Assembly: GCA_001632425.1 (NCBI GenBank)
Contig: KV425557.1
Location: 186,001-250,000 of the forward strand
From: Neolentinus lepideus HHB14362 ss-1
Lineage: Eukaryota; Basidiomycota; Agaricomycetes; Gloeophyllales; Gloeophyllaceae
Length of the DNA: 64,000 nucleotides
Direction of reading: 5' to 3'
Shown here piece by piece: positions 51,725-54,642 of the stretch. A model generated the notes under the pieces. It did not search any database. It was not told the origin of the DNA and saw only the letters and a list, made by a program, of their open reading frames with translations. Position 1 is the stretch's first letter. The number at the start of each line of letters is the position of its first letter. Both the position numbers and the translations under genes were made by a program.

Positions 51725-54642
51725 ATGTCTTTGAACAAGCAGATTCCCTTCCCCCCATTGGACTTGAAACACCAGTCTGTCGAAGTCCCAGGGACGAAGA
51801 GGGCGGGGCAAACTGGTCCGTACACCATTTCCCTGAGCGATTTGTACTTGCGTTGGCTGATGATGTTCATCGCGATCAACAGGTCATTACCGTAACGGTA
51901 TGTGATGAAACGCTATCGTGGCGCGTGGAGGATCTGACGTCGCGTAGGATGCTGGGGTCTCATCCCTATCGGTGCTGAGCCCAACCGCCTCAGCACTCTT
52001 CTCGATCTCTTCAACACTGGTTACGCGCTCTCGAAGGACCTCCCATTCCTTGGGTACCGACCAAAACTCGCGGAGAATGAGTTCGCCAAACAGTATGTCT
52101 GGCAGACGTATGCCGAGGTGGACGTGAGGAGGCGGTCAATTGGAAGTGCCCTCCACGCTCTTTTTCAGAAGGGTGTTCTGGGAGGCGGTGACATGGAGAC
52201 GGTCGGAATATGGAGTCAGAACAGACCTGGTTCGCGTGATGCGTCTCGAATGGATTGCCGTCAACTGACATTTTCATTACTCTGTCCCAAGAATGGCAAG
52301 TCATTGACCTTGCACTGCATGCATACAAGAAAGTAGGGGTCAGTTTGTACGATACGTTAGGTCGGGACTCCGTGGGTACGTGTCCTGTTACTTGTATCGG
52401 ATCACCGTCTTACCATTTCACCAGAATACATGTATGTATACGTGATTTTATCTATTGTGCGGTCTCACAACTGCGTGCAGCATTCGCCATGCGCACTTGA
52501 CCGTTATATTCGCAACATGGCAGCATATACCCACTCTTTTGAAGCTCGCACCTAGCCTCTCATCTATCTTGAAACTGATAGTCTGCATTGACGACATCCC
52601 TCCGAAGGCCAAGTTCGTACTATCTTCGTGGGCTGAACTGCAGAAAGTGCAGATCAAAGAACTCCGTGAACGTAAGTATCCCATGAGTGATGCACTCCAA
52701 TTCACATTTGTGACGTTCTTCAGTCGAGGTGGAAGGCAAATCATGCTTGATCGAGCCATTTTCGGTAACTCCAGATGTCATAGCTTCGTTATGTTACACT
52801 TCGGTAAGTCAAAGTTGGAATTCATTACATGGATTGTTGCACTGAAGATCTATGTCCAGGGCACAACAAGCACCCCAAAGGGTTAGTCCGATATGCACTA
52901 TAATTGTTCTTGAAATAATAGGTATTCTAGGTGCTGCCTTGACACATGGCAATTTGGCTAGTGCTGTCGACTCGTGTCTGCACGGAACTGGCTTTGACAC
53001 CCGCGGTGTTTTGCTATCCTATCTCCCTCTAGCTCATATATACGAGGTAATTGTGATCTAGGCTGAGTTGATTTATAATCTGACATCAGACGCAGAGGAT
53101 CGCCGAACTGCTCATAATCACCATAGGAGGATGCATTGGCTACTTCACTGGTGATCCCCTGAGACTGCTTGAAGACGCTCAGCTCCTGAAACCAAATTAC
53201 TTCCCCTCAGTACCCCGAGTACTAAACCGGGTGTACCAGTCGGCTATGGTCGCAGGCAGTGCTCCAGGGTTGAGAGGCAAGCTTTTCAGCAAAGCTGTGG
53301 AGACCAAGCTACACAGACTCAGAACAACTGGTATTAATACCCATCTGTTCTGGGACCGGCTTGTCTTCAAGAAGGTGAGACCTTGGGATGTAGGTCGTCT
53401 TTACTTCGTAGGGCTCATCTTCGTGTTTAGGTGGGTGCTGTGCTAGGCGGTAATCTGAAGATGGTTTCTTGTGGGTCCGCGCCTATATCTCCTGAGGTGA
53501 TGGACTTCTTGAAGATTGCCCTTGCCTGTGACGTTGTTGAAGGTAATCTCTATATTTTACAAATTGTTGCGATGCTGACGGATACTCTAGGGTATGATAG
53601 TTACCCGTAAATCAAGACTGAGGGTGAAGCTGATGCATGATTTACAGATACGGCATGACGGAAAACGGTGCGACATGTAGTCGTGTATGGCCGAACGACC
53701 CCACTTCGAGCGGCACCGTTGGCCCTCCTCAGCCCTGCAACGAGGTCAAGCTTGTCGATGTACCTACCATGGGATACAGCGCAGAGGATAAGCCTAATCC
53801 ACGGGGTGAACTGTGCGTGCGGGGCCCTAACTGTTTCTCGGGCTACTATAAGGGTATGTCCCGTGCTGCTGAAGCAAATCTGTGCATTGAAGCCCCACTT
53901 GCAGATGAAAAGAACACGAAAGAAGCCTTGGATGATGAAGGCTGGCTGCATACAGGCGATGTTGCCGCTATCGACGAATGTGGTCGGATCAAAATAATTG
54001 ATCGTGTCAAGGTAGGTTCTACAGACACGCCGAAGAACCCCGACTAATATCTTATATAGAACATTATGAAACTCGCCCAAGGCGAATACGTTGCTCTAGA
54101 GAAGATTGAAAATCTTTATGCCGCATGCCCTCTCGTTGCTCAAGTATATGTGCACGGGGATTCTTTACAATCATACCTGATTGGGGTTATTGTGCCCGAT
54201 CCAGTACAGCTTGCCTCGCTTGCTTCTAATGTTACCGGAAAGAAAGTTTCTCCAGAAGACCGACTAGCTCTGGACAACGCCGTTAGGGACGAAAAAGTTG
54301 CCTCTGCTCTCCTCAGCTCATTGGACGTCGAGGCGCAAAGGAATGCTCTGAAAGGGTGAGTGAACGTATTATAGACTTGGGAATCAGTCTAACCTCATTC
54401 TTATAGATTTGAATGCTTGAAGCGTATTCACGTTGCTTTGGACCCCTTCACAGTTGAGGACGGTACTTTGACACCTACGCTTAAGATTAAGCGGTCAGTT
54501 CACTTCCTAAATCGTCCTGTTCCTTGGTTCTGAATGCTAGTCTGTCATACCTAGGAAGGACGCATACAACAAGTTCAAGCGCGAGCTCGACGCCCTGTAT
54601 GCCTTGGGCGAACCTAATCCGGGACGGCCTTCAAAGCTCTAG
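51725..54642 (+). CDS. Long-chain acyl-CoA synthetase with peroxisomal SKL end
   Basis: Activates fatty acids to acyl-CoA using ATP. Exons, each length checked for phase: 51725-51815, 51883-51897, 51948-52229, 52292-52375, 52425-52431, 52481-52671, 52724-52803, 52860-52881, 52931-53046, 53096-53374, 53431-53542, 53591, 53648-53853, 53905-54011, 54060-54355, 54407-54493, 54555-54642. They total 687 residues. The AMP-binding P-loop is YTSGTTSTPKG (residues 248-258); later motifs are YLPLAHIYE, EGYGMTENG, GYYKDEKNTKEALDDEGW-LHTGD and KLAQGEYVALEKIE. The protein ends PSKL, a PTS1 signal, so beta-oxidation in peroxisomes is the likely role. Exons of 7 and 15 nt, and an apparent 1-nt exon at 53591, are needed for conserved residues. 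The 51-nt intron 53854-53904 lacks a stop and keeps frame if retained. Confidence 0.93.

What the first reader, a model, noticed from the sequence alone, without database searches (positions are those of the whole stretch)
53543..53647. Apparent single-nucleotide exon in the acyl-CoA synthetase
The conserved motif E-G-Y-G-M-T-E spans this junction. The upstream exon ends GAA G (53542) and the downstream exon starts ATACGGC (53648); direct joining gives the wrong frame. The 105 nt between contain, around one G at 53591, two complete introns: 53543-53590 (48 nt, GTAATC...CTGAC...CTCTAG) and 53592-53647 (56 nt, GTATGA...CTGAT...TTTACAG). Both have the local size and signals. Keeping only that G restores GGA (Gly427), and the full 17-exon model then totals exactly 688 codons with stop. 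A one-nucleotide exon has, to my knowledge, been reported in a plant (Arabidopsis APC11); I know of no basidiomycete case. Alternatives are a non-canonical GT...CA intron or a one-base sequence error.
Basis: partly seen in the sequence, partly recalled or inferred. Interest (0 to 1): 0.9.

Follow-up and report, generated by a model that had tools for sequence, protein, structure and literature searches.

The report
One-letter exon in a mushroom gene
A fatty-acid-activating gene of the wood-rotting mushroom Neolentinus lepideus appears to contain an exon just one nucleotide long, and database proteins from many other mushrooms look mis-predicted at the same spot, as if they share it; no RNA evidence was available to prove it.

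Summary
In a long-chain acyl-CoA synthetase gene (17 exons, 688 codons with stop), exon 11 ends in phase 1 (GAA G, 53542) and exon 13 starts in phase 2 (A TAC, 53648). Of 97 in-frame one- or two-intron solutions, exactly one restores the catalytic motif EGYGMTE: introns of 48 and 56 nt around a lone G at 53591. The genome is Neolentinus lepideus HHB14362 ss-1. A sequence error is now unlikely: the annotated protein of Heliocybe sulcata (88% identical) lacks exactly CDVVEG here, as expected from the same phase clash. Of 96 genome-annotated relatives, 38 have an indel at this junction (18 of 960 at ordinary junctions), against 0 of 24 transcript-like proteins. In 23 of 25 one-residue artefacts (EG-X-YGMTE), from five orders of Agaricomycetes, the extra residue implies the same clash. 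The lone G may thus be old and widespread, though no relative's DNA could be read. The kind is known: plant APC11 and VPS55, and Fusarium CYP621A (2026), with the same AG|G|GT inside a glycine codon. I found no basidiomycete case in my searches. The main rival is intron 11 read as a 16-residue insert; RT-PCR would decide.

The parts
51725..54642 (+). Long-chain acyl-CoA synthetase gene, coding span of 17 exons, 688 codons including stop
   Evidence: Spliced model; Pfam AMP-binding PF00501 E 1.9e-72; orthologs Heliocybe sulcata 88% and Gloeophyllum trabeum 85-86%
53431..53542 (+). Exon 11 (112 nt), ends GAA G in phase 1
   Evidence: exon 11 of the C107 paralog is also 112 nt and ends in the same phase
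53543..53590 (+). Intron 11, 48 nt, GTAATC...CTCTAG; weak donor (2.5 bits; 2 of 29 reference introns are as low or lower), good acceptor
53575..53579 (+). Branch-point-like CTGAC of intron 11; the A at 53578 is 12 nt from the intron end
53591..53591 (+). Exon 12: single nucleotide G, the middle base of the glycine codon GGA in EGYGMTE
   Evidence: the only one of 9 single-intron and 88 two-intron in-frame solutions that gives VEGYGMTENG
53592..53647 (+). Intron 12, 56 nt, GTATGA...TTTACAG; donor 5.2 bits (6 of 29 references as low or lower)
53630..53634 (+). Branch-point-like CTGAT of intron 12; the A at 53633 is 14 nt from the intron end
53648..53853 (+). Exon 13 (206 nt), starts A TAC GGC in phase 2
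51883..51897 (+). Exon 2, a 15-nt microexon, also 15 nt in the paralog
52425..52431 (+). Exon 5, a 7-nt microexon (AATACAT), also 7 nt in the paralog

Best explanation
The site is a real single-nucleotide exon (G, 53591) between two canonical GT-AG introns of ordinary size in a functional acyl-CoA synthetase gene. Each intron is probably recognised across itself (intron definition), so exon length does not matter. Because the 3' splice site of intron 11 and the 5' splice site of intron 12 are one base apart, the two introns are presumably removed one after the other. Intron 12 has the better donor, so one likely order is intron 12 first, which leaves an ordinary phase-1 intron 11 (GAAG|...|GATAC); the other order gives the same mRNA, GAA-GGA-TAC. 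Shown: sequence, signals, frame, uniqueness of the solution, and the artefacts in relatives that imply the same phase clash. Inferred: that splicing takes place this way, its order, and the evolutionary age. A plausible origin is an intron gained one base from an older phase-1 intron, or loss of one exon base rescued by a cryptic AG|G|GT (the idea of PMC12940212); neither was tested.
For: Unique restoring solution among 97 in-frame alternatives. Size, acceptors and branch motifs match 29 reference introns. Chance of the whole pattern 1.5e-5 to 1.3e-3; only site of 5393 stretches in the window. Ortholog P0001 (Heliocybe) lacks exactly CDVVEG before YGMTE, which fits a cryptic donor chosen to reach a phase-2 acceptor. 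In the set, 37 of 96 genome-annotated homologs are deformed at this motif and 0 of 24 transcript-like ones. An indel lies within 8 residues of this junction in 38 of 96, against 18 of 960 for ten junctions not next to an exon of 15 nt or less (Fisher p 8e-30); next highest are the junctions at the 15-nt exon (5 and 17 of 96) and the 7-nt exon (15 and 15 of 96). Of 25 one-residue inserts EG-X-YGMTE (15, 1, 9 from the biased), 23 have an X that an ordinary phase-1 acceptor cannot give; a donor shifted 4 nt in GTNNGT plus a phase-2 acceptor allows any X, and the implied third donor base is a purine in 18 of 23. The motif is uninterrupted in 21 of 21 proteins from contigs with under 600 nt to spare. 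Precedents with transcript proof: PMC12940212, PMC4674806, PMC8831610.
Against: No RNA data for this species. No genomic DNA of any other fungus could be read, so the phase clash elsewhere is deduced from annotated proteins. The donor of intron 11 is weak. Intron 11 is open and a multiple of 3, so a model without it is also open. The C107 paralog has one ordinary 70-nt phase-1 intron at this place. In the set 59 of 96 genome-annotated relatives are clean, including the ortholog P0002 of G. trabeum, so the structure is not universal or is sometimes modelled correctly.
Confidence: 0.88

Rival explanations
1. Only intron 12 is an intron; the 48 nt of 'intron 11' are translated, giving EG-NLYILQIVAMLTDTLG-YGMTE with 16 extra residues. 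No microexon is needed.
For: It is open and in frame with canonical GT-AG splicing of one 56-nt intron. Database proteins with similar inserts exist (P0010, P0014, P0173).
Against: The paralog has an intron starting at the same GAAG|GT in phase 1. The 48 nt carry a donor, CTGAC 12 nt from the end and CTCTAG. The insert would split a motif that is uninterrupted in 44 of 44 transcript-like homologs and in the two best solved chains, 6oz1_A and 5msp_A. Inserts of other species are of different length and look unrelated (read by eye). Heliocybe needs another explanation.
Confidence: 0.06
2. A single ordinary phase-1 intron with one G lost from CAGG by sequencing or assembly error.
For: The paralog shows exactly such an arrangement, GAAG|...|GC TAT.
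Against: The sister species' annotation implies the same phase-2 acceptor, as do 23 other proteins. The intron would be 105 nt against 48-88 in 29 references and would contain a second set of signals by chance.
Confidence: 0.02
3. One non-canonical 104-nt GT...CA intron, cut before the G of the terminal AG.
For: Gives the same mRNA and would work in every species with a phase-2 AG acceptor.
Against: No such splice site is known to me (recalled). The length is about double the norm and the internal AG|G|GT with branch point would be coincidence. In Arabidopsis APC11, changing the internal lone base changed the cDNA (PMC4674806).
Confidence: 0.02
4. The gene carries a true frameshift and is decaying.
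For: A copy on C107 exists that could cover the function.
Against: The other 14 introns and the rest of the frame are intact, and the 687-aa product is 88% identical to Heliocybe.
Confidence: 0.02

Closest known systems
Single-nucleotide exon of Fusarium CYP621A (PMC12940212, 2026; parts 1 and 2 of 3 read)
   Same: Lone G as AG|G|GT, middle base of a glycine codon in a conserved motif, phase-1 donor facing a phase-2 acceptor, composite intron longer than usual, wrong in all but one of the database transcripts the authors list
   Different: Ascomycete, P450 gene, 18 RNA reads support splicing; here a basidiomycete, an acyl-CoA synthetase, no RNA data
Single-nucleotide exons of Arabidopsis APC11 (PMC4674806, part 1 of 3 read) and plant APC11 and VPS55 (PMC8831610, passages read)
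   Same: One retained base between two introns; conserved across land plants, missing from annotations
   Different: In Arabidopsis APC11 the base is A in a 422-nt composite intron; proven by cDNA and mutated constructs
Single-nucleotide exons between group II introns of fungal mitochondrial rnl (PMC12308204, passages read)
   Same: One base between two adjacent introns in fungi
   Different: Mitochondrial group II introns in an rRNA gene, not nuclear spliceosomal introns
Stwintrons (PMC12403724, PMC6616335; only the abstract openings in the listing seen)
   Same: Two fungal introns in one place that need consecutive excision
   Different: A stwintron has one intron interrupting a splice signal of another; here both introns are complete and one base is kept
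Recursive splicing ratchet points (PMC8605326; only the abstract opening in the listing seen)
   Same: Acceptor beside a donor, stepwise removal
   Different: Ratchet points lie in long introns with acceptor and donor juxtaposed; here both introns are about 50 nt and one coding base is kept

Membership tests
Single-nucleotide exon | Flanking exons clash by exactly one base in phase | tested here: met
   Phase 1 to phase 2; 9 single-intron in-frame GT/GC-AG solutions, none restores the motif
Single-nucleotide exon | One base flanked by AG and GT, with complete introns of normal size and branch points on both sides | tested here: met
   48 and 56 nt, CTGAC/CTGAT, acceptors at the 83rd percentile of references, donors at the 7th and 21st
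Single-nucleotide exon | Keeping the base restores a conserved protein motif and full frame | tested here: met
   EGYGMTE and 688 codons; the only one of 88 two-intron solutions to do so
Single-nucleotide exon | Conserved in orthologs | tested here: inconclusive
   Implied by annotation artefacts in Heliocybe and 23 other proteins; ortholog P0002 is clean; no relative's DNA available
Single-nucleotide exon | cDNA contains the base | not testable with these tools
   No reads of N. lepideus are available here
Stwintron | An internal intron interrupts donor, branch point or acceptor of an external intron and everything is removed | tested here: not met
   Both introns have intact GT, branch motif and AG; removing all 105 nt shifts the frame
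Recursive-splicing ratchet point | Acceptor and donor directly juxtaposed, no base kept | tested here: not met
   One base lies between, and it is needed for the frame

The most novel reading that the evidence does not exclude
The single-nucleotide exon is an old, shared feature of acyl-CoA synthetase genes across Agaricomycetes (Agaricales, Boletales, Russulales, Polyporales, Gloeophyllales). It predates the two gene copies of Gloeophyllales, was reduced to one intron in some lineages by loss of one flanking intron, and has been mis-modelled in dozens of published mushroom genomes.
Probability: 0.7. Interest if true: 0.75.

Novelty: new member of a known kind. Interest (0 to 1): 0.62.

Why it matters
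If true it would be the first single-nucleotide exon reported in a basidiomycete, as far as the searches show, and, by the pattern of annotation artefacts, perhaps the most widespread one in fungi. It would show that short-intron fungi can splice without help from exon length, give a natural series of species to time gain and loss of adjacent introns, and mean that the catalytic motif of this enzyme is probably wrong in 37 of the 96 genome-derived database proteins examined.

Tried and rejected
Tried without result: fungal DNA was sought in viral contigs and genome contigs. Searches confirmed no relative; one search found 582 relatives and kept 80 loci, all titled as bacterial or archaeal records, which were not used. 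No N. lepideus entry for the window gene appeared among the 120 listed hits, 24 or 26 (each a capped list), so how its depositors modelled it is unknown. Exons 13-17 alone were not used as a query in that protein database.

Rejected: tandem duplication of one intron as origin (the local similarity of introns 11 and 12 is reached by 1028 of 2000 shuffles). RNA structure bringing the sites together (z 0.68 for the region). A second AG|G|GT at 53621-53625 would leave a 24-nt intron. A 16-nt middle exon (53591-53606) is in frame but breaks the motif. GC donors as cause of the one-residue inserts in relatives: they would give NGN codons, which fit 2 of 25.

Technical failures: wrong file path; no spliced solution with GT donors only; one search solved it by also allowing a GC donor.

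Limits: the 24 and 44 'transcript-like' proteins were classed by source tags and contig length; only 12 and 21 of them sit on contigs with under 600 nt to spare. They are not free of indels elsewhere: 1 of 24 at each of three other junctions. One search used a query carrying an inserted residue, so its hits are biased towards artefacts; rates are quoted only. Of the 25 one-residue inserts, 15 come, 13 of them incompatible with a phase-1 acceptor. The tree used 145 rows (44 transcript-like rows, and 4 rows with fewer than 450 residues outside the junction, were dropped); the window row was labelled 'single' by me. On it deformed/clean needs 37 changes and one-residue/other 21, so the artefacts are scattered. 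It is a FastTree tree with long branches and cannot tell gain from loss.

Literature: of the 9 papers listed I read the microexon passages of four (PMC1184071, PMC3990503, PMC4014442, PMC8022950). The first gives 6 bp as the shortest P450 exon of Phanerochaete; the other three only mention a mapping option. The single paper likewise. The other papers in these lists, apart from those said here to be read, were seen as titles and abstract openings only.

Full report
What is there. The window lies in contig C7 of a 33.8-Mb genome. A protein named Neolentinus lepideus HHB14362 ss-1 lies on a contig of 85,596 bases, the length of contig C107 here, and splicing the C107 gene reproduces that protein exactly. 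The organism is therefore this mushroom (a wood-rotter, recalled), order Gloeophyllales. The gene at 51725-54642 is a long-chain acyl-CoA synthetase (PF00501; name from the homologs). It also contains microexons of 15 nt (exon 2) and 7 nt (exon 5), both of the same length in the paralog.

The junction. Exon 11 ends GAA G and exon 13 starts A TAC GGC. I listed all one- and two-intron solutions around it (donors GT or GC at 53490-53660, AG acceptors at 53560-53720, introns of at least 40 nt). Nine single-intron and 88 two-intron solutions stay open, and exactly one of the 97 restores VEGYGMTENG: introns 53543-53590 and 53592-53647 around G53591. Both introns fit 29 reference introns from this gene and its paralog (48-88 nt, median 54) in length, acceptor and branch motif; the donor of intron 11 is weak, 2 of 29 references being as low or lower. 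The joint pattern is rare by chance (1.5e-5 in Markov introns, 1.3e-3 in end-preserving shuffles), and no other of 5393 GT..AG stretches of 100-110 nt in the window shows it.

The paralog. The C107 copy has the same exon and intron order, microexons included, but a single 70-nt phase-1 intron here, GAAG|...|GC TAT. So the donor GAAG| is an old intron position, and the question is why the acceptor of the window gene lies one base later in the codon.

Relatives. I could read no DNA of other fungi, but annotated proteins carry traces. The closest ortholog, Heliocybe sulcata (88%), is co-linear here except for a missing CDVVEG directly before YGMTE. With GT-AG splicing, ALA|Y is reached by a cryptic donor GC|GTGT and an acceptor |N TAC in phase 2, which is the acceptor phase of the window gene (the codon GCG is inferred, the DNA was not seen). 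Trametes polyzona (P0175) shows the same kind of deletion.

In the 120 proteins (a capped list), sorted into 96 genome-annotated and 24 transcript-like, 37 of 96 are deformed at this motif (15 one-residue inserts, 15 longer inserts or deletions, 7 broken) and 59 are clean, while 24 of 24 transcript-like ones are clean. An indel within 8 residues is seen in 38 of 96 here and in 18 of 960 at ten junctions not next to an exon of 15 nt or less. The next worst junctions are those at the 15-nt and 7-nt microexons, with up to 17 and 15 of 96. Failure of annotation thus tracks exon size and is worst here.

The one-residue inserts are the most telling. Over there are 25 proteins from 25 species reading EG-X-YGMTE (15, 1 and 9; one search was biased towards them). 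If the acceptor were the ordinary AG|GN TAC, X would be coded NGN (R, S, G, C, W); only 2 of 25 fit, or 2 of 15 within. If the donor GAAG|GTNNGT is shifted by four bases to its second GT to reach AG|N TAC, any X is possible, and the implied third donor base is a purine in 18 of 23; in this gene's own model it is a purine in 12 of 16 introns. These proteins come from Agaricales, Boletales, Russulales, Polyporales and Gloeophyllales (at least one species of each looked up; the other placements are recalled). They include the second Gloeophyllum trabeum copy (P0145), whose nearest relative is the N. lepideus C107 copy. So the phase clash appears on both paralogous branches, which fits an origin before their split, though two origins are not excluded. 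Longer inserts ending in G before YGMTE (P0010, P0014, P0173) look like a retained first intron plus the lone G, just as retention of intron 11 would look here (EGNLYILQIVAMLTDTLGYGMTE); they can also be read as retained ordinary phase-1 introns. Results against: 59 of 96 relatives are clean, among them the G. trabeum ortholog P0002, so the structure is not shown to be universal, and the remaining longer artefacts were not decoded one by one.

Mechanism. With introns this short, recognition across the intron is expected (established knowledge of fungal splicing, recalled). An acceptor and the next donor one base apart cannot serve both complexes at once, so the introns should leave in turn. 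Intron 12 has the stronger donor (5.2 against 2.5 bits); I favour its removal first, which leaves a conventional phase-1 intron. G suits both positions (first exon base after AG, last exon base before GT), as Nelson and Syed argue for Fusarium.

Comparison with the literature. Single-nucleotide exons are known in Arabidopsis APC11 (PMC4674806, part 1 of 3 read), plant APC11 and VPS55 (PMC8831610, passages), Fusarium CYP621A (PMC12940212, parts 1 and 2 of 3 read), and between group II introns of fungal mitochondria (PMC12308204, passages). The Fusarium case has the same AG|G|GT in a glycine codon, the same phases and RNA support. Nothing listed names a basidiomycete case; most of those papers were seen as titles and abstract openings only, and the library holds open-licence PMC papers only. 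The shortest exon in the Phanerochaete P450 survey is 6 bp (PMC1184071, passages). The present site is not a stwintron, because no splice signal is interrupted, nor a ratchet point, because one base is kept.

Verdict. A probable single-nucleotide exon (0.88), a new member of a known and very rare kind. What is more than one extra case is the indication that it is old and widespread in mushroom-forming fungi, which public genomes and RNA-seq can test at once.

Noticed in passing
53543-53590: Intron 11 is a multiple of 3 and open, so its retention together with splicing of intron 12 would give an in-frame isoform with 16 extra residues in the catalytic motif.
   Followed up: partly
51883-51897 and 52425-52431: Microexons of 15 and 7 nt, same lengths in the C107 paralog; their junctions are the next most often mis-annotated in relatives (up to 17 and 15 of 96).
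   Followed up: partly
L003 (minus strand), intron after exon 12 of the paralog: A GC-AG intron (GCACGC...GTCTAG, 58 nt) where the window gene has GTATGT.
   Followed up: no
P0121, P0123, P0132: Database proteins of Lyophyllum shimeji, Blastosporella zonata and Mycena chlorophos end exactly at ...EG of this motif, as if the gene model stopped at the donor.
   Followed up: partly
53621-53625: A second AGGGT in intron 12; using it would leave a 24-nt intron.
   Followed up: yes
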